Shown here: piece after piece, positions 1 through 41,704 of the stretch
Position numbering within the stretch: the first letter of the stretch is position 1
Layout: each line of letters starts with the position of its first letter
Source: Procambarus clarkii
Lineage: Eukaryota > Arthropoda > Malacostraca > Decapoda > Cambaridae
Direction of reading: 5' to 3'
Assembly (NCBI RefSeq): GCF_040958095.1
Contig: NC_091199.1
Coordinates: 31,840,008-31,904,007 of the forward strand
Length of the DNA: 64,000 nt
Program-made: the position numbers and the translations under genes
The notes under the pieces: generated by a model
Database searches by the model: none
Told to the model about the DNA's origin: nothing
What the model saw: only the letters and a program-made list of their open reading frames with translations

Positions 1-540
1 AGTGACCAGCCCCAGGGACCAGGTGGTGACCCGTGACCAGCCCCAGGGACCAGGTGGTGACCCGTGACCAGCACCAGGGACCAGGTGGTGACCCGTGACC
101 AGCACCAGGGACCAGGTGGTGACCCGTGACCAGCCCCAGGGACCAGGTGGTGACATGTGACCAGCCCCAGGGACCAGGTGGTGACCAGCCACAGGGATCA
201 GGTGTTGACCAGCCCCAGGGACCAGGTGGTGACCCTTGACCAGCACCAGGGACCAGGTGGTGACCAGTGACCAGCCCCAGGGACCAGGTGGTGACCCGTG
301 ACCAGACCCAGGGACCAGGTGGTGACCCGTGACCAGACCCAGGGACCAGGTGGTGACCCGTGACCAGCCCCAGGGTCCAGGTGGTGACCCTTGACCAGCA
401 CCAGGGACCAGGTGGTGACCAGTGACCAGCCCCAGGGACCAGGTGGTGACCCGTGACCAGCCCCAGGGACCAGGTGGTGACCCGTGACCAGCCCCAGGGA
501 CCAGGTGGTGACCCATGACAAGCCCCAGAGACCAGGTGGT
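1..540. repeat. 31-bp minisatellite, left block
   Basis: Tandem copies of a 31-bp unit with core gaccagccccagggacc followed by aggtggtgacccgt, with a few shortened units. The block runs off the left window edge. It stops abruptly at 540, where the foldback element begins, and resumes in the same orientation at 12616. Its last ~540 bases match 13725-14265 unit for unit, including the rare variant gggatcaggtgttgacc at 192 and 13917. The minus strand is stop-free in several frames, which produces false open frames. Confidence 0.95.
535..540. other. Left 6-bp target site duplication (GGTGGT)
   Basis: GGTGGT directly precedes the element terminus AGTAGTAGGG, and the same six bases follow the opposite terminus at 12610-12615. 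Removing the element and one copy of the six bases restores a normal minisatellite unit (agagaccaggtggttacccg). Confidence 0.85.
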
Positions 541-720
541 AGTAGTAGGGATGACACGCCAGCGGCTCCTTTTTTTTTTCAGGCCGGAGGACCCCTGTGG
601 ACTGTACACGCCAGCGGCTCCCTTTTTTTTTCAGGCCAGAGAACCCCTGTGGACTGTACACGCCAGCGGCTCCTTTTTTTTCTGGGAAATATCCCGCGTG
701 TTAGCCAGGGTTTTCAGGTA
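541..720. repeat. 52-bp terminal tandem repeats of the foldback element
   Basis: Units begin acacgccagcggctcc, continue with a T8-T10 tract and aggcc, then acccctgtggactgt. Starts are at 554, 606 and 658 (period 52), and the third copy is partial. The mirror image is at ~12431-12609. Poly-T length differs between copies and arms. Subterminal repeats like these are common transposase-binding platforms in DNA transposons; that role is only inferred here. Confidence 0.85.
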
Positions 721-1320
721 AATTTTGTCAGTCACAGATTTTAGAAGTAAGGATTTCTTATGATGAAAATAATTTCCGAGACATAGAAGTTTGTTAAGGG
801 CTTATGGGAGAAATTCAAATATCGTGTGTAGCGCTTTAGGGTTTCCAGGATAACTCTACGGACATATTTTACATGTTTTCAACTTACAAATATCGTCTAT
901 GTAAGCCATAGTTTTTCAGGTAAATTTAGAAAATCACCTTTGTAAGTCAGGGTTTTCAGGGGCTCGTACCTCACACCCTCCTCCCTCCCCCTTACCTCGC
1001 AATCTCTCGCGTCACCTTTATTTACCTTACGCCCGGCCAGCCAGTCTCCTCTTATCATATCTTATCTTCTCCATAATATCTGGACCGTCCCTCCTCTCTC
1101 TCTCTCTCCTCCTATGTCCTTACAACTATTTTCAGAGTTTCAAATAATCATAGAAGTTTATTTATATGTTTATGACCGAATTTGTAAAAGGACCATTTTC
1201 AGAGAATATTGTCTTAGATGTTTTGTTAAGGAAAACAGACAACTTATCCATAACATTTAGTTTTATATCCATTTACGGCTATTTCATCTGTAAAGATCAA
1301 AATTGAACAGAGCCCAGTTT
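721..1320. other. Arm segment of mostly unique sequence
   Basis: Non-coding sequence with a C/T-rich stretch (about 965-1110, cctcctccctcccccttacc and tctctctctctcctcc). It mirrors ~11880-12430. No gene, promoter or RNA gene is recognisable. Confidence 0.6.
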
Positions 1321-1860
1321 TAAGCTCATATTTCATCAGAGTCCAGTTTATACCGAAAATTCGCCAGAGTCTACTTTGAGAGCAAAATTAGTCAGAGACA
1401 GTTTTAAGCTCATATTTCATCAGAGTCCAGTTTATACCGAAAATGCGCCAGAGTCTACTTTGAGAGCAAAATTAGTCAGAGACAGTTTTAAGCACATATT
1501 TCATCAGAGTCCAATTATCAACAGAAATTCGCCAGAGTCTACTTTGAGATCAAAATTAGTCAGAGACAGTTTTAGCTCATATTTCATCAGAGACCATTTT
1601 ATATCTAAAAATGAACAGAGTCTACTTTAATAGCAAATTCATCAGAGTCCAGTTTTCTAGCAAATTTCATCAGTGTCCTGTAATCTGTGAAAATTTGACA
1701 GAGTCCAGTTCTTGATCGAAATTCATCAGAGTCCAGTTTTCTAGCAAAATTCGCCAGAGTCTACTTTGTGCCAAAATATTCAGAGTCCAGTTCATGATCG
1801 AAATTAATCAGAGTCTAATTAAAGACCCAAATTTGGCAGAAACCACATTTTCGCTACTAG
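1320..1860. repeat. 84-bp and half-unit tandem repeats (tcagagtccagttt family)
   Basis: Units combine cagagtccagtttataccg, aaaattcgccagagtctac and ttagtcagagacagttttaa. The left arm has three full 84-bp units, while the mirror region (~11460-11830) has one. Shorter 30-40-bp derivatives follow toward 1850. The frame open across 1376-1630 is just this repeat, since 84 is divisible by three. Confidence 0.8.
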
Positions 1861-1929
1861 CAGTCCAATCCCCCTGAAATTTTAAACAGTCATATTTCAG
1901 ACGTAGTAAATAAGATCAAGTCAGTTACA

Positions 1930-2380
1930 GAGCTCCAGCTCTTGTCCCCCTGTATTTGCATATTTTCTCTATATTCAGCTGCGTTCTCCACATTTTGTCC
2001 ATGTTTTCTGTGTTCATTCCATGTTCTACAAATGTTCACAGCATGCTCAGTTCAATTCTTTTCACCTGTTTTTTCTCATTTTTTCTGTAATCTTTCTCTT
2101 AGTCTCATTATGTTCTCTGCAAATTCTAGTCATATTTTCTATGTACATCATATGTTCTCTGTATAACTTTTATACTCAATATTCATGTTCTCAATGTTCT
2201 AGCTTGTTCTTCACACGTTCAGTGTTCATTCTTTGTATTCCCTATGTTCCTTATCATGTCTTCATATTTTCTATAAGTTCATATTCCCTGCATGTTCACT
2301 CTATTCATCAACTTTTTCTTACATGTTTTCTGTGTTCACCGTATGTTCACTGTGTTCATTCCCTTACTTAACCTCAATTT
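1930..2380. repeat. tgttc-rich short degenerate repeats
   Basis: Irregular repetition of atgttctctgtgttcat-like words roughly every 15-30 bp, T/C-rich on the + strand. Mirror at ~10950-11390. The open frames here translate to Phe/Ser/Cys-rich low-complexity peptides and are not considered genes. Confidence 0.7.
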
Positions 2381-2389
2381 TTTTTATGT

Positions 2390-3440
2390 TCTTTGTTTCT
2401 TCCATTCGCTAACTAGTTCTTTGTCAAATATTAGCATCAGCAATACAGTTCCCTCAACAATTTTAGTCACCAAGTTTTATTTTCAAAACTATATCAAAGT
2501 AATTCTCGTTGTCAACTTAATAGTTCTACCAGCCATGTTCTTAAACAAATCTACACTTTATTCAGTTCCAAATTTACAAAAGACAAACCTTTCTTGTAAC
2601 TTCTTAACTAAAAATCTTTCGCCAATCAACTGAAACATAGTCACTTTCCTCATTTCTCAACTAACTTATTATCCAATCAACCAAAAATTGTCAAAGGAAA
2701 CTTTCCAAAACTGTTCATAACTAAACTTATTCCCTAGTCAACAGAAAATAACCGTGTTCTTCATGTTTCATTGTCATTTCATAACTAAAATTATCCGCCA
2801 ATCATCAGAAAAAGTCATGTTCATCATGTTTTGTCTTTTGCTTAACTAAAATTATGTTTTGTCAAGTAAGAAAAAATAACCAAAGATATCTTTCATCGCT
2901 GTTCTTAACTGACATTATACTTTGGGGAGCAAAAAATAGTCACTGTCATCATGTTTTGTCTTTTTCCATAACTAAAAGTGTTCATCGGTCAACTATAAAT
3001 AGTTACTTCATCATGTTTCCTTGTCATTTCTTAACTGAAATATCACTTCTCTCATCTGAAAATAGTCAGGATTAATCTCATTCAACACCGTTCTTAACTA
3101 AAACAGCCTTTCGCTTAGCTAAAAATTGTCAAAGGAATCTTTTCAGCACTGTTCATAACTAACTTTATCCATAGTCAAGTAAGAAAATATAGTCAAAGAT
3201 ATCTATCATCGTCGTTCTTAACTGGCATTATACTTTGTGGAGCACTAAAATAGTCACTGTCGTCATATTTTGTCTTTTTCCTCAACTAAAATAGTCAAAT
3301 GTAACTTTTTCAACACTTTCGTAACTAAAATTATATGTCGCTAAGTAAGAAAAAATAGTCAAATGTAACTTTTTCAGCACTTTCGTAAAAATTATATGTC
3401 GTTAAGTAAGAAAAATAGTCAAAGGTGCTCTCCGTAACAC
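2390..3440. repeat. Degenerate 60-85-bp repeats (cataactaaaattat / aaaatagtca family)
   Basis: Recurring words are ttcttaactaaaatta, gtcaactaaaaatagtca and catcatgttttgtctttt, spaced about 60-85 bp apart. Clear repetition spans about 2640-3440; 2390-2640 is less clearly periodic. Mirror at ~9880-10930. No coding signal beyond short chance frames. Confidence 0.65.
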
Positions 3441-5170
3441 CAAAGTTACTCTTCAAGATAACAAAAGACACTCTCAAACAATCAAAAATTTACTCGCATC
3501 CTCAAAGTTATTCTCAGTCATCAAAAAGTTAATCTCAGTCATCAAAATGCTATTCTCCAAGTAGCCTTTCATTCATCAGAGAACTTTCTAAGACATCTTC
3601 GTTCATTAAAGTTAATCTCAGAGGCATAAAAGTTATTCTCGGAGCTATCAAAAAGTTAATCTCTAAAACAACAAAAGTTAATCTCTGTCATCAAAGTTGA
3701 TCTGCAAGATATCTTCGAGTCATCAAAGTTACTTTTCATTACATCAAAGACGCATTCAAATACTACCCATGTTCTCAGAAGTCATTCTCAAAGTCATCAA
3801 AGTTATTCAAAGAGCTAACAAAAGTTATTCTCAGTCACCTTCGTTCTTCAGAGAAACTTTCCAAAACATCTTTGTTCATCAAAGTTATTCTCAGAGTTAA
3901 CAAAGGTAATCTCTAACTCACTTTCGTTCAACATATTAATTCTCTAAGTCCTCAAAGTTATTCTCTAAGACAACAAAGGTAATCTCTAAGACAACAAAGT
4001 CTTTCTAAGAGCTATCAAAAGTTATTCTCAGTCATCAAAAGTTATTCCAAGAGACGTCAAAGTTAATCCAAGACATCATCTTTCATCAAAGATATTCTCT
4101 CTAAGCCATCAATGTTCTTCTCTAAGACATAAAAGTTATTCTCTATGTCATCAAAAAGTTATTCTCTGAGCTAACAAAATACTACTCATGTTCTCAAAGA
4201 CATTCTCCAATTCATCAAAGTTGTTTCAAAGACATCAAAGTTAATCTCAGAGTTATCCAAAGACATTCTCAAAGTCATCTAAAGTTATTCTCTAAGACAT
4301 CAAAGTTATTCTAAGAGTTATTCTCAGTCATGTTATGTTATTCTCTAACTCACTTCCATTCATCAAAGACATTCTCTAAGCCCTCAAAGTTATTCTCTAA
4401 GACAACAAAGTCATTCCCAGAGTCATCAAAAAGTTATTCTTCGAAACGTAAAATTTGCTCTGTAAGATATCTTCGTTCATCAAACTTATTCTCAGAGATA
4501 TCTTAAGTTATTCTCAGAACAATCAAAAGGTATTTTAAGACAACAAAAGTTATTCTCAGAGCTACCCAAAGCTATTCTCAGAGTCACCTTCGTTCGTCAG
4601 AGAAACTTTCAAAACATCTTTGTTCATCAAACTTGTTTTCAAAGTCATCAAAAGTTAATCTAAGACATCTTCTTTCATCAAAGTTATTTTCAGAGACATC
4701 TAAAGTTATTATGTAAGACATAAAAGTTATTCTCAGAGTCATCAAATGTTATTCTCGAAGTCATCAAAGATATTTTCAGAGACATCTAAAGTTAATTTCT
4801 ATGTTATAAAAGTTATTCTCAGAGACATCTAAAGTTAATCTTGGTCATCAAAGTTGTTCTCTAAACATCAATGTTGTTCTCCAAGACATCAAAGATGTTC
4901 TCAAAATCATAAAAGTTATTCCCAGAGCTATCAAAGTTATTCTCAAAGTCATCAAAGTTATTCAAAGAGCTAGCAAAAGTTATTCTCTAAGTAACCTTTC
5001 GTTCATCAGAGAAGCTTTCTAAGACATCTTCGTTCATCAATGTTGATCTCTAAGTCACCTTGGTTCATCAAAGAAACTCTCCTTCTTCCATCAAGTTATA
5101 CTTTAAGACAACATTGTTGTTCTCTAAGACATCTTCAGGCATAAAATTTCTCTCCAAAATGTAACTAGTT
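3440..5170. repeat. Short interspersed tandem words (aaagttattctcagag family)
   Basis: About 1.7 kb of near-tandem words of 22-30 bp such as catcaaagttattctc, agagacatctaaagttaat and ctaagacatc. Mirror at ~8150-9880. The array is too degenerate for one consensus period. No gene. Confidence 0.75.
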
Positions 5171-5269
5171 CAGCTTTTCATACCAAACCTGCATTTCTGT
5201 TAAAACATATTTTCTTAGTTGCTTTACCCTAAAACTGTTCTCTGAACTACACTGTTCAAACCTACGTAA

Positions 5270-5810
5270 CCTATCCTCTCCACCCAATGTTACTTAGTTA
5301 TCGTAACGTTCCTAAACCTAACTTTACCTATCCTAACATAACTTACCTTACCTTACCTAACTTTACCTATCTTACCTAACTTAACCTGCATAACCTAACT
5401 TTACCTATGTTACCTTACCTTACCTATCTTACCTAACCTAACCTAACTTTACCTATGTTACCTTACCTTACCTACCTTTCCTAACTTAACCTGCTTAACC
5501 TATCTTACCTATCTTACCTAACTTTACCTATCTTACTTAACTTTCATAACCTAACTTTACCTATCCTAACATAACTTACCTTACCTTCCCTATCTTACCT
5601 AACTTTACCTATCCTAACATAACTTACCTTACCTATCATACCTAACTTAACCTAAATTACCTATCCTAACTTAACTTACCTAACTTATTCTGCTTAACCT
5701 AACTTACCTACATTACCTAACTTAACCTGCTTAACCTAACTTATTTAACTTATCTTACCTATCCTAACCTAACTTGCTTTACCTAACTTAATCTTACATT
5801 CCCAAACTGA
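5270..5810. repeat. Degenerate telomere-like CCTAA array, left arm
   Basis: Dense repetition of cctaac, ttacctaac and tttacctatc, i.e. a degenerate CCTAA pattern with interposed TTAC. TTAGG/CCTAA is the usual arthropod telomere motif. Mirror at ~7520-8050 reads TTAGG on the + strand. It is not a perfect (TTAGG)n tract, so it is a telomere-like internal repeat, not a working telomere. Confidence 0.75.
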
Positions 5811-5869
5811 TGTATCCTAACTTATCTAGTCAAACCAGACATGATCTAACTTACATAAGTATTCCTTCT

Positions 5870-6310
5870 TGTCTTTTGTGTTTCGTCAATCAGTGTCTCA
5901 TATTCATTTACTCATTTCATTAGTTAATTTCTCAAATGGTCACTTATGCGTTTCAAGTGCTATTTGTTAGAGATTTGATATTTAAGCATTTCAAAGAATT
6001 TTTGTTATATATGTGCATTTACTCATTTCAAGGGTTAATTTCTCAAATGGACATTTTTGCATTTCAAGTGTCATTTGTTTAAGATTGGGTGTTTAACCAT
6101 TTCAAAGGTTTTTGTTATATATGGGAATTTACTCGTTTCAAGGGCTAATTTCTCAAATGGTCATTTTTGCAGATCAAGGGTTATTTGTTACAGTTCATCA
6201 AGTTGCTCATAAGTTGTATTTATTATGTTTGTTATCATTTATTCTTATTCCCCAACCCCTTAACCTAACCTCTTGTAATCGTAGTGTATTTGGTAGGTTC
6301 TAGCTTATGT
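5870..6310. repeat. ~90-bp tandem repeats (atttcaagggctaatttctc family)
   Basis: Three to four copies of a ~90-110-bp unit containing ttactcatttcaaggg, tttctcaaatgg and gttatatat. They are followed by two copies of a taacctaacctttcatatgtag-like segment up to 6430. Mirror at ~7010-7450. An identical 63-codon frame on opposite strands (6112-6303 and 7016-7207) only reflects the palindrome. Confidence 0.7.
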
Positions 6311-6467
6311 TCTTATTCCCAACCCTTTAACCTAACCTTTCAGATGTAGTTTATGGTGTTTTTGACGTATTTGTTGAATATATTATCCTTTTCCTAACCT
6401 TTCATATGTAGCTTTGTTTCTCCTTTTTGTATATTTTTACCCAAACCTTCTTTCCTTCTTTACTTTG

Positions 6468-6851
6468 TTTTCACATATAAGTTCATTCTTTATCTTAGTA
6501 ATAATAGAATTACAATAGTAAAGAATCAGATCTACTAAGACTTGAAATTGAGAAACAAGAGCTCAAGGGATTGAGAGCATGAAAGAAGAGCAAGGAGTAA
6601 GAGAGAGGGGGTAGAAGAAAATGGGACCAAAGAAGAGAGAATGAGAGAGAGTGTGGGCATGGGAGCACTAAGACTTGAATTTGAGAAAAAGAAAAACTAA
6701 GTGAATGAGAGTGAGGGTGTGAGAATGGGAGCAATAATAATTGAATTTGAGAAACAAGAGAGCATTTGAGCAAATGAGGGAGAGAGAGGGGGAGGAAGAG
6801 AGAGAATAAGGGAGAGAGATAGAAAAGGAGGGTTAGAAGGAGTAGGAGAAT
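6468..6851. other. Purine-rich loop of the palindrome
   Basis: 384-bp single-copy centre between the arms, strongly A/G-rich on the + strand (runs such as gagagagaggggg and gaagagagagaataaggg). It contains two similar segments built on actaagacttgaa-ttgagaaa and their variants. The complementary strand is open for 131 codons only because polypyrimidine lacks stops; the product would be Leu/Ser-rich low complexity. A polypurine tract between long arms could adopt triplex or cruciform structure, which is inference. Confidence 0.75.
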
Positions 6852-9800
6852 CAAAGTAAAGAAGGAAAGATGGTTTGGGTAAAAATATACAAAAAGGAGA
6901 AACAAAGCTACATATGAAAGGTTAGGAAAAGGATAATATATTCAACAAATACGTCAAAAACACCATAAACTACATCTGAAAGGTTAGGTTAAAGGGTTGG
7001 GAATAAGAACATAAGCTAGAACCTACCAAATACACTACGATTACAAGAGGTTAGGTTAAGGGGTTGGGGAATAAGAATAAATGATAACAAACATAATAAA
7101 TACAACTTATGAGCAACTTGATGAACTGTAACAAATAACCCTTGATCTGCAAAAATGACCATTTGAGAAATTAGCCCTTGAAACGAGTAAATTCCCATAT
7201 ATAACAAAAACCTTTGAAATGGTTAAACACCCAATCTTAAACAAATGACACTTGAAATGCAAAAATGTCCATTTGAGAAATTAACCCTTGAAATGAGTAA
7301 ATGCACATATATAACAAAAATTCTTTGAAATGCTTAAATATCAAATCTCTAACAAATAGCACTTGAAACGCATAAGTGACCATTTGAGAAATTAACTAAT
7401 GAAATGAGTAAATGAATATGAGACACTGATTGACGAAACACAAAAGACAAGAAGGAATACTTATGTAAGTTAGATCATGTCTGGTTTGACTAGATAAGTT
7501 AGGATACATCAGTTTGGGAATGTAAGATTAAGTTAGGTAAAGCAAGTTAGGTTAGGATAGGTAAGATAAGTTAAATAAGTTAGGTTAAGCAGGTTAAGTT
7601 AGGTAATGTAGGTAAGTTAGGTTAAGCAGAATAAGTTAGGTAAGTTAAGTTAGGATAGGTAAAGTTAGGTTAAGTTAGGTATAATAGGTAAGGTAAGTTA
7701 TGTTAGGATAGGTAAAGTTAGGTAAGATAGGGAAGGAAAGGTAAGTTATGTTAGGATAGGTAAAGTTAGGTTATGAAAGTTAAGTAAGATAGGTAAAGTT
7801 AGGTAAGATAGGTAAGATAGGTTAAGCAGGTTAAGTTAGGAAAGGTAGGTAAGGTAAGGTAACATAGGTAAAGTTAGGTTAGGTTAGGTAAGATAGGTAA
7901 GGTAAGGTAACATAGGTAAAGTTAGGTTATGCAGGTTAAGTTAGGTAAGATAGGTAAAGTTAGGTAAGGTAAGGTAAGTTATGTTAGGATAGGTAAAGTT
8001 AGGTTTAGGAACGTTACGATAACTAAGTAACATTGGGTGGAGAGGATAGGTTACGTACGTTTGAACAGTGTAGTTCAGAGAACAGTTTTAGGGTAAAGCA
8101 ACTAAGAAAATATGTTTTAACAGAAATGCAGGTTTGGTATGAAAAGCTGAACTAGTTACATTTTGGAGAGAAATTTTATGCCTGAAGATGTCTTAGAGAA
8201 CAACAATGTTGTCTTAAAGTATAACTTGATGGAAGAAGGAGAGTTTCTTTGATGAACCAAGGTGACTTAGAGATCAACATTGATGAACGAAGATGTCTTA
8301 GAAAACTTCTCTGATGAACGAAAGGTTACTTAGAGAATAACTTTTGCTAGCTCTTTGAATAACTTTGATGACTTTGAGAATAACTTTGATAGCTCTGGGA
8401 ATAACTTTTATGATTTTGAGAACATCTTTGATGTCTTGGAGAACAACATTGATGTTTAGAGAACAACTTTGATGACCAAGATTAACTTTAGATGTCTCTG
8501 AGAATAACTTTTATAACATAGAAATTAACTTTAGATGTCTCTGAAAATATCTTTGATGACTTCGAGAATAACATTTGATGACTCTGAGAATAACTTTTAT
8601 GTCTTACATAATAACTTTAGATGTCTCTGAAAATAACTTTGATGAAAGAAGATGTCTTAGATTAACTTTTGATGACTTTGAAAACAAGTTTGATGAACAA
8701 AGATGTTTTGAAAGTTTCTCTGACGAACGAAGGTGACTCTGAGAATAGCTTTGGGTAGCTCTGAGAATAACTTTTGTTGTCTTAGAATACCTTTTGATTG
8801 TTCTGAGAATAACTTTAGATATCTCTGAGAATAAGTTTGATGAACGAAGATATCTTACAGAGCAAATTTTACGTTTCGAAGAATAACTTTTTGATGACTC
8901 TGGGAATGACTTTGTTGTCTTAGAGAATAACTTTGAGGGCTTAGAGAATGTCTTTGATGAATGGAAGTGAGTTAGAGAATAACATAACATGACTGAGAAT
9001 AACTCTTAGAATAACTTTGATGTCTTAGAGAATAACTTTAGATGACTTTGAGAATGTCTTTGGATAACTCTGAGATTAACTTTGATGTCTTTGAAACAAC
9101 TTTGATGAATTGGAGAATGTCTTTGAGAACATGAGTAGTATTTTGTTAGCTCAGAGAATAACTTTTTGATGACATAGAGAATAACTTTAATGTCTTAGAG
9201 AAGAACATTGATGGCTTAGAGAGAATATCTTTGATGAAAGATGATGTCTTGGATTAACTTTGACGTCTCTTGGAATAACTTTTGATGACTGAGAATAACT
9301 TTTGATAGCTCTTAGAAAGACTTTGTTGTCTTAGAGATTACCTTTGTTGTCTTAGAGAATAACTTTGAGGACTTAGAGAATTAATATGTTGAACGAAAGT
9401 GAGTTAGAGATTACCTTTGTTAACTCTGAGAATAACTTTGATGAACAAAGATGTTTTGGAAAGTTTCTCTGAAGAACGAAGGTGACTGAGAATAACTTTT
9501 GTTAGCTCTTTGAATAACTTTGATGACTTTGAGAATGACTTCTGAGAACATGGGTAGTATTTGAATGCGTCTTTGATGTAATGAAAAGTAACTTTGATGA
9601 CTCGAAGATATCTTGCAGATCAACTTTGATGACAGAGATTAACTTTTGTTGTTTTAGAGATTAACTTTTTGATAGCTCCGAGAATAACTTTTATGCCTCT
9701 GAGATTAACTTTAATGAACGAAGATGTCTTAGAAAGTTCTCTGATGAATGAAAGGCTACTTGGAGAATAGCATTTTGATGACTGAGATTAACTTTTTGAT

Positions 9801-12609
9801 GACTGAGAATAACTTTGAGGATGCGAGTAAATTTTTGAGTGTTTGAGAGTGTCTTTTGTTATCTTGAAGAGTAACTTTGGTGTTACGGAGAGCACCTTTG
9901 ACTATTTTTCTTACTTAACGACATATAATTTTTACGAAAGTGCTGAAAAAGTTACATTTGACTATTTTTTCTTACTTAGCGACATATAATTTTAGTTACG
10001 AAAGTGTTGAAAAAGTTACATTTGACTATTTTAGTTGAGGAAAAAGACAAAATATGACGACAGTGACTATTTTAGTGCTCCACAAAGTATAATGCCAGTT
10101 AAGAACGACGATGATAGATATCTTTGACTATATTTTCTTACTTGACTATGGATAAAGTTAGTTATGAACAGTGCTGAAAAGATTCCTTTGACAATTTTTA
10201 GCTAAGCGAAAGGCTGTTTTAGTTAAGAACGGTGTTGAATGAGATTAATCCTGACTATTTTCAGATGAGAGAAGTGATATTTCAGTTAAGAAATGACAAG
10301 GAAACATGATGAAGTAACTATTTTTAGTTGACCGATGAACACTTTTAGTTATGGAAAAAGACAAAACATGATGACAGTGACTATTTTGTGCTCCCCAAAG
10401 TATAATGTCAGTTAAGAACAGCGATGAAAGATATCTTTGGTTATTTTTTCTTACTTGACAAAACATAATTTTAGTTAAGCAAAAGACAAAACATGATGAA
10501 CATGACTTTTTCTGATGATTGGCGGATAATTTTAGTTATGAAATGACAATGAAACATGAAGAACACGGTTATTTTCCGTTGACTAGGGAATAAGTTTAGT
10601 TATGAACAGTTTTGGAAAGTTTCCTTTGACAATTTTTGGTTGATTGGATAATAAGTTAGTTGATAAATGAGGAAAGTGACTATGTTTCAGTTGATTGGCG
10701 AAAGATTTTTAGTTAAGAAGTTACAAGAAAGGTTTGTCTTTTGTAAATTTGGAACTGAATAAAGTGTAGATTTGTTTAAGAACATGGCTGGTAGAACTAT
10801 TAAGTTGACAACGAGAATTACTTTGATATAGTTTTGAAAATAAAACTTGGTGACTAAAATTGTTGAGGGAACTGTATTGCTGATGCTAATATTTGACAAA
10901 GAACTAGTTAGCGAATGGAAGAAACAAAGAACATAAAAAAAATTGAGGTTAAGTAAGGGAATGAACACAGTGAACATACGGTGAACACAGAAAACATGTA
11001 AGAAAAAGTTGATGAATAGAGTGAACATGCAGGGAATATGAACTTATAGAGAATATGAAGACATGATAAGGAACATAGGGAATACAAAGAATGAACACTG
11101 AACGTGTGAAGAACAAGCTAGAACATTGAGAACATGAATATTGAGTATAAAAGTTATACAGAGAACATATGATGTACATAGAAAATATGACTAGAATTTG
11201 CAGAGAACATAATGAGACTAAGAGAAAGATTACAGAAAAAATGAGAAAAAACAGGTGAAAAGAATTGAACTGAGCATGCTGTGAACATTTGTAGAACATG
11301 GAATGAACACAGAAAACATGGACAAAATGTGGAGAACGCAGCTGAATATAGAGAAAATATGCAAATACAGGGGGACAAGAGCTGGAGCTCTGTAACTGAC
11401 TTGATCTTATTTACTACGTCTGAAATATGACTGTTTAAAATTTCAGGGGGATTGGACTGCTAGTAGCGAAAATGTGGTTTCTGCCAAATTTGGGTCTTTA
11501 ATTAGACTCTGATTAATTTCGATCATGAACTGGACTCTGAATATTTTGGCACAAAGTAGACTCTGGCGAATTTTGCTAGAAAACTGGACTCTGATGAATT
11601 TCGATCAAGAACTGGACTCTGTCAAATTTTCACAGATTACAGGACACTGATGAAATTTGCTAGAAAACTGGACTCTGATGAATTTGCTATTAAAGTAGAC
11701 TCTGTTCATTTTTAGATATAAAATGGTCTCTGATGAAATATGAGCTAAAACTGTTTCTGACTAATTTTGATCTCAAAGTAGACTCTGGCGAATTTTCGGT
11801 ATAAACTGGACTCTGATGAAATATGAGCTTAAAACTGGGCTCTGTTCAATTTTGGTCTTTACAGATGAAATAGCCGTAAATGGATATAAAACTAAATGTT
11901 ATGGATAAGTTGTCTGTTTTCCTTAACAAAACATCTAAGACAATATTCTCTGAAAATGGTCCTTTTACAAATTCGGTCATAAACATATAAATAAACTTCT
12001 ATGATTATTTGAAACTCTGAAAATAGTTGTAAGGACATAGGAGGAGAGAGAGAGAGAGGAGGGACGGTCCAGATATTATGGAGAAGATAAGATATGATAA
12101 GAGGAGACTGGCTGGCCGGGCGTAAGGTAAATAAAGGTGACGCGAGAGATTGCGAGGTAAGGGGGAGGGAGGAGGGTGTGAGGTACGAGCCCCTGAAAAC
12201 CCTGACTTACAAAGGTGATTTTCTAAATTTACCTCAAAAACTATGGCTTACATAGACGATATTTGTAAGTTGAAAACATGTAAAATATGTCCGTAGAGTT
12301 ATCCTGGAAACCCTAAAGCGCTACACACGATATTTGAATTTCTCCCATAAGCCCTTAACAAACTTCTATGTCTCGGAAATTATTTTCATCATAAGAAATC
12401 CTTACTTCTAAAATCTGTGACTGACAAAATTTACCTGAAAACCCTGGCTAACACGCGGGATATTTCCCAGAAAAAAAAAGGAGCCGCTGGCGTGTACAGT
12501 CCACAGGGGTTCTCTGGCCTGAAAAAAAAGGGAGCCGCTGGCGTGTACAGTCCACAGGGGTCCTCCGGCCTGAAAAAAAAGGAGCCGCTGGCGTGTCATC
12601 CCTACTACT
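6852..12609. repeat. Right inverted-repeat arm of the foldback element
   Basis: Reverse complement of 541-6467 at what looks like 98-99% identity by eye. It carries the same order of tandem-repeat families in mirror image: TTAGG-like block at ~7520-8050, tttgatga/gagaataac block at ~8150-9880, longer repeats at ~9880-10680, gaacat-rich block at ~10950-11390, actggactctg block at ~11460-11830, and 52-bp terminal repeats at ~12431-12609. No gene was seen. Confidence 0.93.
7520..8050. repeat. Degenerate telomere-like TTAGG array, right arm
   Basis: Mirror copy of 5270-5810, reading taggtaagttaggttaag on the + strand. TTAGG-type repeats therefore face each other across the centre of the palindrome. 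Confidence 0.75.
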
Positions 12610-12615
12610 GGTGGT
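12610..12615. other. Right 6-bp target site duplication (GGTGGT)
   Basis: GGTGGT follows the terminal CCCTACTACT and matches the six bases before the other end. It is followed by tacccgtgaccag, the normal continuation of the minisatellite unit. Confidence 0.85.
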
Positions 12616-15600
12616 TACCCGTGACCAGCCCCAGAGACCAGGTGGTTACCCGTGACCAGCCCCAGGGACCAGATGGTGACCCGTGACCAGCCCCAGGGAC
12701 CAGGTGGTGACCCATGACCAGCCCCAGGGACCAGGAGGTGACCCGTGACCAGCCCCAGGGACCAGGTGGTGACCCGTGACCTGCCCAAGAGACCAGGTGG
12801 TTACCCGTGACCAGCCCCAGGGACCAGGTGGTGACCCATGACCAGCCCCAGGGACCCGGTGGTGACCCGTGACCAGCCCCAGGGACCAGGTGGTGACCCG
12901 TGACTAGCCCCAGGGACCAGGTGGTGACCAGCCACAGGGACCAGGTGTTGACCAGCCCCAGGGACCAGGTGGTGACCCGTGACCAGCCCCAGGGACCAGG
13001 TGGTGACATGTGACCAGCCCCAGGGACCAGGTGGTGACCCTTGACCAGCCCCAGGGACCAGGTGGTGACCAGCCACAGGGACAGGTGTTGACCAGTCCCA
13101 GGGACCAGGTGGTGACCCTTGACCAGCACCAGGGACCAGGTGGTGACCCGTGACCAGCCCCAGGGACCAGGTGGTGACCCGTGACCAGCCCCAGGGACCA
13201 GGTGGTGACCAGCCACAGGGACAGGTGTTGACCAGCCCCAGGGACCAGGTGGTGACCCTTGACCAGCACCAGGGACCAGGTGGTGACCAGTGACCAGCCC
13301 CAGGGACCAGGTGGTGACCCGTGACCAGACCCAGGGACCAGGTGGTGACCCGTGACCAGCCCCAGGGACCAGGTGGTTACCCGTGACCAGCACCAGGGAC
13401 CAGGTGGTGACCCGTGACCAGCCCCAGGGACCAGGTGGTGACCCGTGACCAGCCCCAGGGACCAGGTGGTTACCCGTGACCAGCACCAGGGACCAAGTGG
13501 TGACCCGTGACCAGCCCCAGGGACCAGGTGGTGACCCGTGACCAGCCCCAGGGACCAGGTGGTGACCCGTGACCAGCCCCCGGGACCAGGTGGTGACCAG
13601 CCACAGGGACCAGGTGTTGACCAGCCCCAGGGACCAGGTGGTGACCAGCCACACGGACCAGGTGTTGACCAGCCCCAGGGACCAGGTGGTGACCCTTGAC
13701 CAGCACCAGGGACCAGGTGGTGACCAGTGACCAGCCCCAGGGACCAGGTGGTGACCCGTGACCAGCCCCAGGGACCAGGTGGTGACCCGTGACCAGCACC
13801 AGGGACCAGGTGGTGACCCGTGACCAGCACCAGGGACCAGGTGGTGACCCGTGACCAGCCCCAGGGACCAGGTGGTGACGTGTGACCAGCCCCAGGGACC
13901 AGGTGGTGACCAGCCACAGGGATCAGGTGTTGACCAGCCCCAGGGACCAGGTGGTGACCCTTGACCAGCACCAGGGACCAGGTGGTGACCAGTGACCAGC
14001 CCCAGGGACCAGGTGGTGACCCGTGACCAGACCCAGGGACCAGGTGGTGACCCGTGACCAGACCCAGGGACCAGGTGGTGACCCGTGACCAGCCCCAGGG
14101 ACCAGGTGGTGACCCTTGACCAGCACCAGGGACCAGGTGGTGACCAGTGACCAGCCCCAGGGACCAGGTGGTGACCCGTGACCAGCCCCAGGGACCAGGT
14201 GGTGACCCGTGACCAGCCCCAGGGACCAGGTGGTGACCCATGACCAGCCCCAGAGACCAGGTTGTTACCCGTGACCAGCCCCAGAGACCAGGTGGTTACC
14301 CGTGACCAGCCCCAGGGACCAGATGGTGACCCGTGACCAGCCCCAGGGACCAGGTGGTGACCCATGACCAGCCCCAGGGACCAGGAGGTGACCCGTGACC
14401 AGCCCCAGGGACCAGGTGGTGACCCGTGACCTGCCCAAGAGACCAGGTGGTTACCCGTGACCAGCCCCAGGGACCAGGTGGTGACCCATGACCAGCCCCA
14501 GGGACCCGGTGGTGACCCGTGACCAGCCCCAGGGACCAGGTGGTGACCCGTGACCAGCCCCAGGGACCAGGTGGTGACACGTAACCAGCCCCAGGGACCA
14601 GGTGGTGACCCGTGACCGGCACCAGGGACCAGGCGGTGACCCGTGACCAGCCCCAGGGACCAGGTGGTGACCCGTGACCAGCTCCAGGGACCAGGTGGTG
14701 ACCCGTGACCAGCCCCAGGGACCAGGTGGTGACCCGTGACCAGCACCAGGGATCAGGTAGTGACCAGCCCCAGGGACAAGGTGGTGACCCGTGACCAGCC
14801 CCAGGGACCAGGTGGTGACCTATGACCAGCCCCAGGGACCAGGTGATGACCCGTGACCAGCACAAGGGACCAGGTGGTGACCCGTGACCAGCCCATAGGA
14901 CCAGGTGGTGACCCGTGACCAGCCCCAGGGACCAGGTGGTGACCCGTGACCAGCCCCAGAGACCAGGTGGTGACCCGTGACCAGCCCCAGGGACCAGGTG
15001 GTGACCCGTGACCAGCCCCAGGGACCAGGTGGTGACCCGTGACCAGCCCCAGGGACCAGGTGGTGACCCGTGGCCAACCCCAGCGACCAGGGGATTACCC
15101 GTGACCATCCCCAGGGACCAGGTGGTGACCCGTGACCAGCCCCAGGGACATAGGGGTGACCCGTGACCAGCCCTAGGGACCAGGGAGTGACCCGTGACCA
15201 GCCCCAGGGACCAGGGGTGACCTGTGACCAGCCCCAGGAACAGGTGGTGACCCGTGACCAGCCGCAGGGACCAGGTGGTAACCCGTGACCAGCCCCAGGG
15301 ACCAGGTGGTGACCCGTGACCAGCCCCAGGGACCAGGTGGTGACCTGTTTAGCCCCAGGGACCAGGTGGTGACCCTTGACCAGCACCAGGGAACAGATGG
15401 TGACCCGTGACCAGCACCAGGGAACAGATGGTGACCCGTGACCAGCCCCAGGGACCAGGTGGTAACCCGTGACCAGCCCCAGGGTCCAGGTGGTGACCCG
15501 TGACCAGCACCAGGGAACAGATGGTGACCCGTGACCAGCACCAGGGAACCGATGGTGACCCGTGACCAGCCCCAGGGACTAGGTGGTGATCCGTGACCAG

Positions 15601-30480: not shown

Positions 30481-31255
30481 GAGTGTTGGCATCATACAAG
30501 ATACCTAGAGACTTGGTTAATTTATCTGGAAGATTTTCATATTCACTTCCATATGTCTCTTGCTGGGCACGTTTGATCCAGTAGAGGATAGGATTGGGAA
30601 ACTTATGTCTGATTCCTATCTTAGCAAGAAAGTCAAACACATGTGCTGTCACTCTTAATAACTTACTCAAGTTAGAATAATTGTGAGGATTAATAACTAA
30701 GATTCGATGAGGTTCTGGTTCTTTCATGGGAGTAGTGATATTGGTCACTATGACTTGTGGCTTTTGTTTGGGTCACTGACCACTAATAAGCCATGAAGGT
30801 CCATTAAGCCACATCGAAGACTTGATAAGTTGTTTTAGTGTCAATCCTCGAGATAAGTAATCTGCAGGATTGTCCTTAGTGGGAACATGTCTGAATTTAT
30901 ATCCAGCAGATAATTCATAAATTTCCCTAACACGATTACTAACGTAGGGAGTTTTATTGTTGTTGTTGTTTCTTACCCATTGTAAGACTGCCTCATTGTC
31001 TGACCACACGACGATTTCACCAAAGTGGATATTATTGAGTGTCTTGGTCAGGCAATGAGCCAATCTTACTCCCACCAGCAATGCAGTTAACTCCATTTGA
31101 GGTAAAGATCTCTTCTTAATGGGAGCAACTCTTGCTTTAGATGTGAACAAAATTGATTCTGCACTATTGACTAAGTAGGATACAGCGCCATATGCTTTAC
31201 CAGAGGCATCGCAAAAAAACGTGCAAATTTGTGGGCAAGTTTTGTCCTGAAGCAT
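30473..31255 (-). pseudogene. BEL/Pao RNase H domain, copy 1
   Basis: Continues the RT polypeptide but in another frame, because a run of seven A residues near 31210 (six in copy 2) shifts the frame. Motifs: FCDASGKAYGAV, MELTALLVG and VWSDNEAVLQW, giving the D-E-D metal-binding positions of RNase H, then HVPTKDNPADYLSRG, typical of BEL/Pao. It degrades the RNA strand during reverse transcription. A stop occurs at 30773-30775 (TGA; copy 2 reads TGG in WPKQ). The frame ends at the truncation point. Confidence 0.88.
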
Positions 31256-32519
31256 TACGAGGAAATTTCAAAACACTTAACTGATTGAAATCTGTTGTGA
31301 GTATCTGCCATTTAGCTTGCAACTCAATTGGCAACGTATCATCCCATCCCATATGTTTCTGCCAGCATTCCTGCATTAGGAGTTTGCCCCTTATTAATAT
31401 AGGACTAAGTAAGCCTAAAGGGTCAAATGGTTGACTGACATACGAGAGTAATTTTCTCATGGTAAGGGATGAATTATCGGTTTGTACTGACTTGACATTC
31501 ATCTCGTCAGTACTTGTGTTCCATTCCACACCCAGAACTTTTAATTGATTAGGCACCTGATAACCTGGAAACTCTTTCTCGATTATCTGGTTTAATGATT
31601 TATTATTTGAGGTCCATGATTGTAGTGGCATATTGGCTCCTAACATCTCACGGTTAGCCTCATGGTAGATTTCTACCAAATTGGATTGATCATTTGTAGT
31701 TCCCTGGAAATTATCGACATACAAGTTGTCACTGATTTCTGCCTTATAAGGGCTATTTGACTTCCTCAAATGTGTATCTAATGTTGCTTGAAGTAGAAAC
31801 GGGGAGGAAGTCGCTCCGAATAGCACTGAGGCAAAACGATAAGTTATGATATCACTGTTAGGATCCAGTAGGTCCTTAATCCAGAGAAACTTGGCGTAAT
31901 TACGATCCTCCTCTTGTAAACCTACTCTAAGGAAAGCTTTACTGATATCAGCAGTATAAGCAAAAATACCAGTACGGAATCGTAATAACACATCATGTAG
32001 CCTTTGTGTTAGGTTAGGTCCCGTTTGGAGACATTCATTCAAAGACACACTGTTTGGCTTCACTTTGGCTTCAGCACTACAGTTGAAGACAATACGTATT
32101 GGTGTCGTCAATGAATCTTTCCCCACAGCGTGATGAGGTAAATAGTGACCTGTTTTTCGGTCATCATTATCAACAACCTTGATAAATTTACTGTTGAGTT
32201 GTTGTTGGATTAGTTGATGATACATGTTCAGTTTGTCTGGCTGCTTCTTCAGTCGTGTTAATTGAGACTGTAATTGTGAGGCTGCCATGAAATAATTAAC
32301 TGGAAGTTGTGGATGATTCAACTTCCATGGTAGTCTCACCCAGTATTGTTTATCTTTATAGACAACTGTATCCAGATATTGCTGGTATATCCACATATCA
32401 TCAGGGCTTGGTTGTTCAGGGATAATGCCTAAAGTGTCTAAATCCCACAGACGATGTACAGGTGGATCAGACTCAATATCTTCAGATATTTCTCTGAAAT
32501 GTAGGGGTGACTGTTCCAA
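31197..32519 (-). pseudogene. BEL/Pao reverse transcriptase, copy 1
   Basis: 440 codons. IPEQPSPDDMWI (residues 33-44) precedes the fingers, HHAVGKDSLTTPIRIVFNCS (129-148) is the family's RT entry block, DISKAFLRV (191-199) holds the first catalytic Asp, and NLYVDNFQGT (265-274) is the second. YVDN replaces YVDD, with Asn at 270 in both copies; such replacement is known in other BEL/Pao elements. The protein is in frame with the protease ORF, from which it is separated only by the TAA at 32640. It ends by frameshift at the A7 tract near 31210. The listed start is simply the first ATG-type codon after that stop. Confidence 0.9.
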
Positions 32520-32639
32520 GCCTAGTCACGCCACTATTGTATTGTTAGATTGTTGGTTGGTTGACGCTGGATTTTGTTGGAAAAGCACCGGTCCAGTAAG
32601 CAATTTGCCTCCAGCAGATGACAACAAATTCATTCCGTG

Positions 32640-33605
32640 TTATCTGGTGCATCCCGTTATAAATTTATAATAATGGTCAGCGCCTATAAGTATTCCAACA
32701 TCAGTGAGGCAGTCAGAATTTATTTTGTAGTCTGCTAGCCTCATGCGGTTTCGTTTAAGATATTTCGCAGTGCGAGCTAATCCTGTGACCTGCAGGTCTG
32801 TAGGAAGTTTGTCTACTACTACCACTTGTATTGGGCTAGTGGAAGATCGAAGTCTCACTAATACCTTAACTACTTGGTATTCACGAGGTCCACTATTAGT
32901 CAAGAAACCAGAAATATTCAATCTCACACTTTTGGCAGGTTTTAATTTTAACTGCTCGACTAATTGTTGTGTAATGAAGGTTTTCTGTGATCCTTGGTCG
33001 AAAAGACCTCTAGTGTTAACTCTGGATTTCCTGTTAATTAATCTAAGTTGAGCTGTAGGCAGAGTGATATTATTGCCTTGCTCAGTAGCAAGTTCATTTA
33101 TTTCTTGATATACCTTGCAATATTGTACTGTGGTAGAATTCGTGGAATTCTCCCCAGTTGTCATGGATTGGGTAGAAGTTTTTCTACACAAGGCATAATG
33201 ATGTATACCTTTGTTGCATCTACTGCATGAACGTAGTTGCACTACACATTTACTGGGATCATGAGAGCCCATGCACTTGGTGCACCTGTGTATTTCTTGT
33301 AACCGTTTAATCCTGGTATTAAAGTTAGGATAAACAGTGCATTGGTAGGTGGCATGTTCTTGACTACAGAACAGACACCTTATCTCTCTGGTTGACTTTG
33401 TCCCTTTAGTAGACAAGTCATTGGTTACACCAGAAGGAGATACTGAATAAGTACCTACATTACCACTCCCTTTTCCAGTGGATGGAGCAGTCCTAGGTTT
33501 AAATTTATTAGACTTATTTAGAGTCGTTTTGGGTTTGACTGAAGTGTCAATATGAGCTGAGTTACGATGGGAGTTAGTAGAGAACTTTGAAACACTTTTC
33601 CCATC
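32640..33605 (-). pseudogene. BEL/Pao nucleocapsid zinc knuckles and aspartic protease, copy 1
   Basis: From the first Met at 33416 (258 codons), three Cys/His clusters occur: C14-C17-H21-C26, C45-C48-H52-C57, and C64-C67 with H/C following. Next is the retropepsin-like motif GLFDQGSQKTFI with Asp140 in a D-x-G-S context, and later GILIGADHYY, the usual end of the BEL/Pao protease region. Zinc knuckles bind element RNA and the protease cuts the polyprotein. The same frame extends back to the TAA at 33606 through a Ser/Thr/Lys-rich linker. The TAA closing the frame (32640-32642) is shared with copy 2. Confidence 0.85.
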
Positions 33606-34546
33606 TTAGTTGACTCTTTGTCTTTCGACTAAGGTATGTAGACCTTCTGTAATTTCTTTCAAGGTCAGAAAGGTTTTATTGTACATAGTACACAATTTAT
33701 CTAAGGTTTCTCTTGGCAATTTTCGCCTAACAACTACTTTGGTCATCCATTCAGCTGTCTGAATTTGGACTTTAAGGCTTAAGGCCTTGAGTAAAGATTT
33801 TAACTCCAGCCTGAAAGTTTGGAGAGAATCTGTAGAATTATTAGCAGATGGTAAATCTAGTAATTTTTGAACTAAGACAGTAATAGTTCTCTCCTTGTTA
33901 TCGTAGTTGGTTTTGAGCAATTGAACAGCTAGGGTGTAACCATCACTGGTCAGTGTTATATTTGAGATTACTTTCAAGGCTTCATTTCGTAACAAGCCTT
34001 GTAAATAAGTGAATTTGGTTGTTTGAGGATGTTGACTTTAGAGTCTACTGCATCCACGAATTTACTCCAGAAATCATCCCAACTTTCATTCTCGCTACCA
34101 GAGAATGTGGGTATGTTGATTTGAGGTAATTTGACATCAGGATCTGTATGTGCAGTAGAAGGTATTGTTAATTTGTTTTTAGCAATTTGCTTTTTAAAGG
34201 GTTGAAGCTTAACCTGTATATCATCTTCATACTCCGCTAAGTCATTTACGACATCCTCAAGTTCACTATTGCCTATAGAAGTTGAGTGAAGTTCTGTCAA
34301 ATACAGATTCATATGTTGCTTAATATGGGCGAATTTGCTTTCAGCAATTTGAAGTAAATCTTCTAATTCAAAGTAGTCAACAGGTGACTGTTGTGACAGA
34401 TTTTGACATTTAGTAATCTGTCGGGTCAAATGACCTTTCAAACCGATAAGGGTCCTTTTCATTTTCTCAGCCGTTTCCATTATGGTGGGTAAAGGCTGGT
34501 TTGACAGTAAATAGTTGTTACTGAGATAACTGGGATATTGACTCAT
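33606..34546 (-). pseudogene. BEL/Pao gag-like protein, copy 1
   Basis: Starts with ATG at 34546. The first 190 codons include a helical region rich in Leu/Gln and INIPTFSGSENESWDDFWSK, the hallmark of BEL/Pao gag (DUF1759-type capsid). The frame then shifts by -1 near 34010, and the capsid continues in the protease frame with QGLLRNEALKVISN to MYNKTFLTLKEITEGL, ending with TAA at 33606. No canonical X-XXY-YYZ slippery heptamer was seen at the shift. The same shift is in copy 2, so it predates the duplication or is a property of the family. Capsid subunits would package the RNA. Confidence 0.85.
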
Positions 34547-39172: not shown

Positions 39173-39317
39173 AGTACCATATTGATGGTGATGTAAAACT
39201 AGAAGTTTGGTAATGATGTTGTGACGTGGTAGAAGGATTGGATTCTATGTATCCAGATCAATTTTGGCATGAAGCAAACGTCCTCCACACCTTAATATAT
39301 TATGAGTGTTGGCATCA
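39173..39317 (-). pseudogene. Integrase upstream region with stop, copy 2
   Basis: In the integrase frame this reads DANTHNILRCGGRLLHAKIDL, then TAG at 39245-39247, then ILLPRHNIITKLLVLHHH, the usual BEL/Pao junction between RNase H and the HHCC zinc domain. The stop is private to what can be seen, as copy 1 lacks this region. Confidence 0.8.
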
Positions 39318-39565
39318 GGAGGGCCTCGTAGCCTGGTGGATAGCGCGCAGGACTCGTAATTCCGTGGCACGGGTTCGATTCCCGCACGAGGCAGAAACAA
39401 ATGGGCAAAGTTTCTTTCACCCTGAATGCCCCTGTTACCTAGCAGTAAATAGGTACCTGGGAGCTAGTCAGCTGTCACGGGCTGCTTCCTGGGGGGAAAG
39501 GCCTGGTCGAGGACCGGGCCGCGGGGACACTAAAAGCCCCGAAATCATCTCAAGATAACCTCAAG
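39318..39565 (+). mobile_element. tRNA-derived SINE inserted in BEL/Pao pol
   Basis: 248 bp. The head 39323-39392 folds like a tRNA with a 7-bp acceptor stem gcctcgt/acgaggc, A box tagcctggtgg, loop ctcgtaa (anticodon position CGT) and B box gggttcgattccc. The body and tail share ttctttcaccctgaatgccc, ggcctggtcgaggaccgggc and cccgaaatcatctcaag with the SINE at 18176. The flanking atca on both sides (39314-39317 and 39566-39569) is a likely short target duplication. Copy 1 shows the empty site (ggcatcatacaagat at 30487). It has no acceptor CCA and is not a working tRNA gene. Confidence 0.9.
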
Positions 39566-41584: not shown

Positions 41585-41704
41585 GCCTAGTCACGCCACT
41601 ATTGTATTGTTAGATTGTTGGTTGGTTGACGCTGGATTTTGTTGGAAAAGCACCGGTCCAGTAAGCAATTTGCCTCCAGCAGATGACAGCAAATTCATTC
41701 CGTG

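What the first reader, a model, noticed from the sequence alone, without database searches (positions are those of the whole stretch)
541..12609. 12-kb near-perfect palindrome with precise 6-bp target duplication: a giant foldback transposon
Seen directly: complementary termini (AGTAGTAGGG / CCCTACTACT), arms of ~5.8-5.9 kb, GGTGGT on both sides, and minisatellite in one orientation on both flanks. An unoccupied paralogue of the same site exists at 14256-14275. Known foldback elements have long internally repetitive inverted repeats, but ~6-kb arms making up ~97% of the element are far beyond what I know for named families. The inference is a mobile element, not a chance inversion.
Basis: partly seen in the sequence, partly recalled or inferred. 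Interest (0 to 1): 0.9.

Follow-up and report, generated by a model that had tools for sequence, protein, structure and literature searches.

The report
Giant palindromic hitchhiker of crayfish Mavericks
A 12,000-letter piece of crayfish DNA that reads almost the same on both strands belongs to a family of gene-less mobile elements that carry the ends of virus-like "Maverick" elements in the same genome, so it probably moves by borrowing their machinery.

Summary
Window 541-12609 is a 12,069-bp element with arms of about 5.93 and 5.76 kb (19 substitutions, one 168-bp unit difference, four small indels), a loop of about 380 bp and a 6-bp duplication, GGTGGT. An unoccupied paralogue of the site matches 497/500 without a gap. 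The source genome (4.03 Gb, by a contig-length match red swamp crayfish) holds relatives. Of 30 loci examined, all have AGTAGTAGGG at the end found and 25 have perfect, mutually different 6-bp duplications. AGTAGT...ACTACT with a 6-bp duplication is a published Maverick/Polinton signature. Three of the 30 are gene-bearing Mavericks; between them were found a DNA_pol_B_2 polymerase, chromodomain integrase, A32-type ATPase, mavirus-like capsid fold and a weak protease match. One of these shares 98.7% of 299 end bases with a palindromic copy. Best reading: a non-autonomous Maverick with foldback architecture, mobilised in trans. Arms agree far better within copies (99.5-100% where palindromic) than with the window copy (83-97%), so something keeps them alike, perhaps hairpin-type copying. 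Not every relative is palindromic: of seven tested inside, four were, two were not and one was a Maverick.

The parts
535..540 (.). left target-site duplication GGTGGT
12610..12615 (.). right target-site duplication GGTGGT
541..6468 (+). left arm, about 5,928 bp (BLAST extends it to 6470)
   Evidence: arm alignment
6469..6850 (.). loop, about 380 bp, purine-rich on +; the 39 other matches scored in the genome are about 98% identical; copy C72 about 92%
6851..12609 (-). right arm, about 5,759 bp, reverse complement of the left
541..546 (+). (AGT)2 terminal motif; mirrored as (ACT)2 at 12604-12609
   Evidence: motif published for vertebrate Mavericks (PMC8097293)
541..1111 (+). part of the arm shared with the ends of gene-bearing Mavericks C45, C79a and C61: main blocks 84-96%; in C45 and the left ends of C79a and C61 arm bases 260-422 do not align
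12041..12609 (-). mirror of 541-1111 (coordinate derived from the arm alignment)
554..681 (+). subterminal 52-bp repeats, 2.5 copies (mirror 12472-12596)
1298..1833 (+). 28/84-bp tandem repeats in the arm; holds the 168-bp copy-number difference 1357-1524
3504..5075 (+). degenerate repeats of mostly 21-22 bp in the arm
5310..5796 (+). CCTAA-like (telomere-like) degenerate repeats in the arm
5906..6190 (+). 111-bp repeats near the loop
14016..14515 (+). unoccupied paralogue of the insertion site in the host minisatellite

Best explanation
The element is a non-autonomous member of the crayfish Maverick/Polinton population. It keeps the Maverick cis-acting end (AGTAGT motif, 52-bp subterminal repeats, about 0.6 kb of terminal inverted repeat) and has, in place of genes, about 5 kb of repeat-rich non-coding DNA per arm in inverted duplication around a loop of about 380 bp. 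Full Mavericks in the same genome would supply the integrase, which inserts it with a 6-bp duplication, and the protein-primed polymerase, which would start at the AGTAGT ends by jumping back. Shown: the family, the ends, the duplications, recent movement, near-identical ends in gene-bearing Mavericks, and arms more alike within than between copies. Inferred: trans-mobilisation, and hairpin (snap-back) copying of one arm from the other during replication as the process that keeps arms alike.
For: Copies: the terminal 200 bp matched 42 rows (40 places plus two partial rows), 40 of 1,285 candidates scored. The end found reads AGTAGTAGGG at 30 of 30 loci; perfect 6-bp TSDs at 25 of 30, all 25 different (window; 9 of 9 pairs; 15 of 20 singles). 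Mavericks: C79a has integrase rve (36.3 bits, cut-off 32.6) with Chromo (27.0/25.1) and Pox_A32 (32.3/22.8) and a DNA_pol_B_2 stretch (45.9/25.8). C61 has a 1,297-aa ORF, 4 of whose 23 homologues carry PF03175, and a 464-aa ORF whose model best matches the mavirus capsid in the PDB (E 3.4e-16, TM 0.50). C45 has polymerase, capsid-like and protease-like pieces 98.7-100% identical in amino acids to C61's and a 963-bp TIR. Shared ends: C44, palindromic where tested, is 98.7% identical over 299 bp to Maverick C45. Internal mirrors: C72 601/601 and C44 601/601, C48 300/300 and C36 301/301. Recent movement: C48/C49 99.7% over 5.1 kb and C72/C44 99.8% over 564 bp, with different TSDs and no match between the right flanks compared. 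Literature: (AGT)2//(ACT)2 and 6-bp TSD (PMC8097293, passages and section 7); adenovirus jumping-back at a doubled terminal triplet (PMC4974454, passages).
Against: No transposition or replication intermediate was seen. Beyond about 0.6 kb the arms have no demonstrated Maverick origin. Of 40 ORFs of 60 aa or more overlapping the element ten were scanned: none passed a Pfam cut-off, one came close (RM5_Med14, 21.1 of 22 bits, a repeat-coded stretch). C42 and C16b, with related arms, failed the internal mirror test. Six of 13 convergent pairs of the inner-arm query have slightly unequal scores (1-13 bits), so their arms differ a little there; seven are equal. C79b, C31 and C67 showed no matching partner end in the 10 kb fetched, C3a's right end reads N and C16a's TSD matches 5 of 6. 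Some TSDs lie in simple repeats (window, C50b, C17, C64), where a 6-bp match says less. The query began with AGTAGT, so finding that motif is partly built in; the TSDs are not. Full polymerase ORFs gave no DNA_pol_B_2 hit in hmmscan, only the cut-out stretch did. The protease match is below its cut-off. In-place gene conversion could also keep arms alike.
Confidence: 0.86

Rival explanations
1. A classical foldback element of a Mutator- or P-type (Galileo-like) lineage that only resembles Mavericks at its ends.
For: Long inverted repeats with internal tandem repeats and no transposase, as in Tetris (PMC4079207, passages). About 44% of the left arm is tandem repeat by TRF.
Against: TSD is 6 bp at 25 of 30 loci, against 8-10 bp for Tetris. 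The ends are up to 98.7% identical to gene-bearing Mavericks. No search for a MULE or P transposase in the genome was run.
Confidence: 0.04
2. Assembly or hairpin-read artefact (palindromic chimera).
For: Near-perfect palindromes are a known artefact class (recalled). No reads could be examined.
Against: The arms differ by 19 spread-out substitutions and a 168-bp unit difference. Exact 6-bp TSD and an unoccupied paralogue. Independent copies, four more with internal mirrors.
Confidence: 0.01
3. The palindromes are Maverick-derived as above, but their arms are kept alike by gene conversion in the chromosome, not during replication of the element. (Compatible with the core of the best explanation; concerns only one step.)
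For: Arms agree better within copies than with the window copy. Conversion between inverted repeats is well known (recalled).
Against: Copies that moved recently already mirror perfectly where tested (C72, C44, C48), and the window copy's 18 plotted arm differences are spread as chance would give, longest clean stretch 792 bp, P 0.85. This fits identity at insertion followed by decay but does not exclude conversion.
Confidence: 0.35
4. Ancient Maverick relics whose long terminal repeats expanded passively, no longer mobile.
For: End sequences of other loci differ from the window copy by up to 15%.
Against: C48/C49 and C72/C44 are 99.7-99.8% identical at unrelated sites, and 39 other loops are about 98% identical to the window's.
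Confidence: 0.05

Closest known systems
Maverick/Polinton (polintovirus), (AGT)2 end type
   Same: 5'-(AGT)2//(ACT)2-3' ends and 6-bp TSD (PMC8097293, passages and section 7); ends shared with gene-bearing crayfish Mavericks, up to 98.7% for copy C44
   Different: No genes found. Inverted repeats of about 5.8-5.9 kb; intact vertebrate Mavericks have 46-1,447 bp and crayfish C45 has 963 bp.
Foldback elements: Tetris (read in passages); Galileo and Drosophila FB (listing and recall)
   Same: Long inverted repeats with internal tandem repeats, a middle domain, no transposase in Tetris
   Different: TSD 6 bp instead of 8-10 (Tetris). Most foldbacks seem to be Mutator-related; this one carries Maverick ends.
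Snap-back defective genomes of AAV
   Same: Self-complementary derivative that keeps the replication end (PMC8235507, abstract and passages)
   Different: AAV snap-backs arise in a virus population. This is a genomic family with a shared loop.
Dada transposons
   Same: 6-bp TSD
   Different: Dada-U6 and Dada-U1 lack terminal inverted repeats and target small RNA genes (PMC3706591, passages).

Membership tests
Maverick/Polinton | 6-bp target-site duplication | tested here: met
   window; 24 of 29 other loci perfect
Maverick/Polinton | (AGT)2//(ACT)2 terminal motif | tested here: met
   window; 30 of 30 found ends, with query bias
Maverick/Polinton | polymerase, integrase and capsid genes in the element | tested here: not met
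   10 of 40 listed ORFs of arm and loop scanned, none above a Pfam cut-off. It can only be a non-autonomous derivative, not a Maverick proper.
Maverick/Polinton (non-autonomous derivative) | shares terminal sequence with gene-bearing copies in the same genome | tested here: met
Maverick/Polinton (non-autonomous derivative) | moved by Maverick proteins | not testable with these tools
   needs bench work
Foldback (architecture) | long inverted repeats with internal tandem repeats making up most of the element | tested here: met
Foldback of the Tetris type | 8-10 bp target-site duplication | tested here: not met
   6 bp; Tetris values
Foldback (Mutator or P lineage) | related transposase between the same ends | not tested
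   no MULE or P transposase search of the genome was run
Dada | no terminal inverted repeats, insertion in small RNA genes | tested here: not met
   huge terminal repeats; target is a minisatellite

The most novel reading that the evidence does not exclude
The palindromes are a molecular parasite of an endogenous virus. They replicate as linear, protein-ended palindromes whose displaced strands snap into roughly 6-kb hairpins (which would restore arm identity each cycle) and are packaged in Maverick capsids. The gene-free repeats would act as stuffer that keeps the length near that of the Mavericks: elements with both ends found, other than the three Mavericks, span 10.4-13.1 kb and pairs estimated from inner hits 8.6-13.2 kb, none longer than the Mavericks at 13.3-13.6 kb. 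The sample is small, and for single ends only partners 7.5-17.5 kb away were looked for.
Probability: 0.25. Interest if true: 0.88.

Novelty: new variant of a known kind. Interest (0 to 1): 0.74.

Why it matters
Foldback elements are usually tied to cut-and-paste transposons. Here the architecture appears on Maverick ends, in numbers: 40 matches scored per query, with 1,285, 2,765 and 1,599 first-look candidates for end, inner arm and loop, most not scored. If the reading is right, virus-like transposons have gene-less palindromic satellites, comparable to defective genomes of viruses but inherited. The family offers a natural test of how protein-primed elements replicate, since arm identity within and between copies records the copying process. 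If a good part of the candidates are real, hundreds or more 6-kb inverted repeats would also bear on crayfish genome stability and double-stranded RNA (recalled reasoning, not tested).

Tried and rejected
Exact patterns from the element's end were sought in IMG/VR. A 16-mer gave 23 contigs with no blastn similarity to the element at E<=1e-3 (empty result), so taken as chance; patterns of 20, 22 and 23 bases gave none. ORFs of the arms were rejected as genes: of 10 scanned (40 listed) none passed a Pfam cut-off. An Rfam scan at gathering thresholds gave only a tRNA outside the element. A simple snap-back of a whole Maverick end was considered: beyond about 0.6 kb the arm does not match the Maverick end sequence held, so the inner arms have another, unknown origin. 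That related copies are always perfect palindromes was rejected by C42 and C16b. Mirror symmetry of base composition was not used as evidence because it follows from the palindrome. Literature: no title on palindromic or foldback Mavericks appeared in the listings (20 of 26 papers listed; 5 of 5; 8 of 8; 10 of 10; 14 of 14; 15 of 143; 10 of 13); most subscription journals and Repbase are not held. Kapitonov and Jurka 2006 was not held.
Full report
What was checked. The element at 541-12609 is as described. A global alignment of the arms gives 19 substitutions, one 168-bp gap (two units of an 84-bp repeat present only in the left arm) and four indels of 1-2 bp over about 5.75 kb; the loop is about 380 bp. 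The palindrome ends abruptly at 541 and 12609. With one GGTGGT removed, 250 bp of each flank join into a 500-bp sequence that matches 14016-14515 of the same minisatellite array at 497/500 without a gap. With 120-bp flanks, of removals of 0 to 12 bp only 6 gave a gap-free best match. The duplication is therefore 6 bp, and the element was inserted into an existing array.

Host. The window lies in a 4.03-Gb assembly of 2,308 contigs. One protein cluster named as Procambarus clarkii lies on a contig of 36,280,329 bases, exactly the length of contig C52 of this assembly. I take the host to be the red swamp crayfish, a decapod. The rest of the window holds BEL/Pao and LINE-type retroelement pieces and long tandem arrays.

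A mobile family. The first 200 bp of the element matched 42 rows: 40 places plus two partial rows at already listed ends. Only 40 of 1,285 candidates were scored, so counts are lower bounds. The 40 places make 30 loci: the window copy, nine convergent pairs and 20 single ends. In the nine pairs each element starts AGTAGTAGGG, ends CCCTACTACT and is bracketed by its own perfect 6-bp repeat: CCCCAG, GTGGTG, ATCATT, TATGTC, CACACA, AACAGA, CACGAC, GTAGGT, GGCGGG (read by eye from the flanks printed). For the 20 single ends 10 kb around the expected partner (7.5-17.5 kb away) was fetched. Fifteen have a partner end and a perfect 6-bp repeat. One (C16a) matches at 5 of 6, one partner end (C3a) reads N, and three (C79b, C31, C67) showed no matching partner end in that stretch. 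In all, 25 of 30 loci have perfect duplications, all 25 different. Those of the window copy, C50b, C17 and C64 lie in simple repeats and say less. Because the query began with the terminal motif, its presence at the hits is partly expected; the duplications are independent of the query.

Ends of a Maverick. A study of vertebrate Mavericks reports 5'-(AGT)2//(ACT)2-3' as the commonest end motif together with 6-bp target-site duplications, and inverted repeats of 46 to 1,447 bp (PMC8097293, passages and section 7). By hand, one given hexamer at the end of a random element has a chance of 1 in 4,096. DNA_pol_B_2 (PF03175; the family of protein-primed polymerases, recalled) has 95 match rows in this genome, 91 of 1,428 candidates scored. 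One lay 9 kb from the end hit C79:12318937. That locus, C79a, is a 13,327-bp element with AGTAGTAGGG ends and TSD GTACTG. Its pieces hold an integrase core (36.3 bits, cut-off 32.6) with a chromodomain (27.0, cut-off 25.1), a Pox_A32-type ATPase (32.3, cut-off 22.8) and a DNA_pol_B_2 stretch (45.9, cut-off 25.8). The full polymerase ORFs gave no DNA_pol_B_2 match in hmmscan, only the cut-out stretch did. C61 (13,459 bp, TSD CACCAC) holds a 1,297-aa ORF with 23 homologues, ten of them named as P. clarkii or Cherax proteins and four bearing PF03175; a 188-aa ORF with a sub-threshold C48 protease match (14.2 of 20.7 bits); and a 464-aa ORF with 33 hits. The model of the last (mean pLDDT 79.9) matches double-jelly-roll capsids: in the PDB the mavirus capsid comes first (E 3.4e-16, TM 0.50, rmsd 12.5); among viral models an unnamed bracovirus protein comes first (E 2e-21, TM 0.36), followed by adomavirus, virophage and NCLDV proteins, many named as capsid proteins. 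C45 (13,606 bp, TSD CCCCAG) is a third: its 963-bp inverted repeats agree 99.7%, and its pieces match C61's polymerase, capsid-like and protease-like ORFs at 98.7, 99.5 and 100%.

The palindrome shares these ends. The first 571 bp of the window arm match C79a, C61 and C45 in main blocks of 84-96%; in C45 and in the left ends of C79a and C61 arm bases 260-422 do not align. Copies C44 and C72, palindromic where tested, agree with Maverick C45 at 98.7% over 299 bp and 97.7% over 260 bp. Beyond about 0.6 kb the palindromes and the Mavericks differ. The palindrome's inner arm looks non-coding: of ten ORFs tested (40 listed) none passed a Pfam cut-off, and about 44% of the arm is tandem repeat by TRF.

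Palindromes elsewhere. Internal mirror tests on seven other copies gave perfect mirrors in four (C72 601/601, C44 601/601, C48 300/300, C36 301/301), no perfect mirror in two (C42, C16b, where related but different arm sequence was found), and a Maverick in one (C45). The centre of C72 has inner arms of 380 bp (99.5%) around about 440 bp, and matches the window's centre, loop included, at 91.9%. The loop as query gave 40 scored matches of 1,599 candidates, the 39 others at 98%. An inner-arm query (921-1300) gave 40 scored of 2,765 candidates at 95-100%, with 13 convergent pairs besides the window's; the two members of a pair score equally in seven and differ by 1-13 bits in six. The shared loop suggests that the palindrome is an inherited form, not repeated accidents; that the loops are flanked by inverted arms was shown directly only for the window and C72. 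C48 and C49 are 99.7% identical over 5.1 kb, and C72 and C44 99.8% over 564 bp, with different TSDs and no match between the right flanks compared: recent movement.

How it probably works. Shown: a gene-less element family with Maverick ends and 6-bp duplications that moved recently in a genome with gene-bearing Mavericks bearing near-identical ends. Inferred: Maverick integrase inserts it and Maverick polymerase replicates it. The doubled triplet at the end suits the jumping-back start of protein-primed replication described for adenovirus, whose template ends are 3'-GTAGTA (PMC4974454, passages). Arms agree 99.5-100% within the palindromic copies tested, against 83-97% in best blocks between the window copy and others. 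I favour identity restored at each replication, because a displaced strand of such an element could fold into one long hairpin in which either arm can template the other. In-place gene conversion is the main rival. AAV snap-back genomes are a known parallel of a self-complementary derivative that keeps the replication end (PMC8235507, abstract and passages).

Length. Elements with both ends found, other than the three Mavericks, span 10.4-13.1 kb, and pairs inferred from the inner-arm query 8.6-13.2 kb (assuming standard ends). The three Mavericks are 13.3-13.6 kb. This would fit a packaging limit, but the sample is small, chosen by similarity and limited in the distance searched, so it is offered only as the bolder reading. 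Several of these loci (among them C17, C37, C66, C27, C47, C28, C64) were not classed as palindrome or Maverick.

Comparison. In architecture it is a foldback element. Tetris in Drosophila virilis likewise has long inverted repeats with internal repeats and no transposase, but 8-10 bp duplications; that paper says most foldbacks seem to be Mutator-related and that the form may arise independently from different lineages (PMC4079207, passages). The present family appears to be such an origin from Mavericks. I saw no title describing one in the listings (of only 15 of 143 papers were listed); Repbase and most subscription journals could not be searched, so an unnamed library entry may exist.

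Verdict. Real, mobile, Maverick-ended, palindromic, non-autonomous: a new variant of a known kind, with an unusual and testable replication problem.

Noticed in passing
31197-34546 and 39545-43608: Two very similar BEL/Pao-type element bodies in the same orientation; an integrase ORF at 38033-39244 lies between them.
   Followed up: partly
50629-64000: More than 13 kb of a degenerate 13-bp minisatellite (GTGTGGTTGTGGG) reaching the window's end, next to a 168/335-bp array at 46827-50618.
   Followed up: no
5310-5796 (mirror about 7522-8010): Telomere-like degenerate repeats inside the arms: CCTAA 26 times in 5251-5850 against 1.8 on average in 1,000 shuffles.
   Followed up: partly
G000:C394:155521-179255: Two convergent pairs about 0.7 kb apart by inner-arm hits; likewise two pairs about 33 kb apart on C44 (34.74-34.79 Mb).
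   Followed up: no
G000:C75:10326952-10355264: Three inner-arm hits on one strand spaced about 13.95 kb: tandem copies or an array.
   Followed up: no
L078 / L109 (C42) and L073 / L110 (C16b): TSD-bracketed copies whose two arms belong to the family but are not mirror images where tested: possible hybrids of two subfamilies.
   Followed up: partly
L064 (C28), L067 (C64): TSD-bracketed elements whose fetched half shares only about 0.57 kb of the arm end plus a small 28-bp-repeat piece, and no tblastn match to the ten Maverick ORFs tried; perhaps further non-autonomous types.
   Followed up: partly
G000, PF03175 matches: 40 rows at E<1e-12 and 55 weaker rows, many with open frames near 1,250-1,300 aa: several polymerase lineages may coexist.
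   Followed up: no
39323-39393 +: tRNA-Thr (CGT) prediction close to the Rfam threshold (30.2 against 29 bits) inside retroelement sequence; perhaps a tRNA-derived piece.
   Followed up: no
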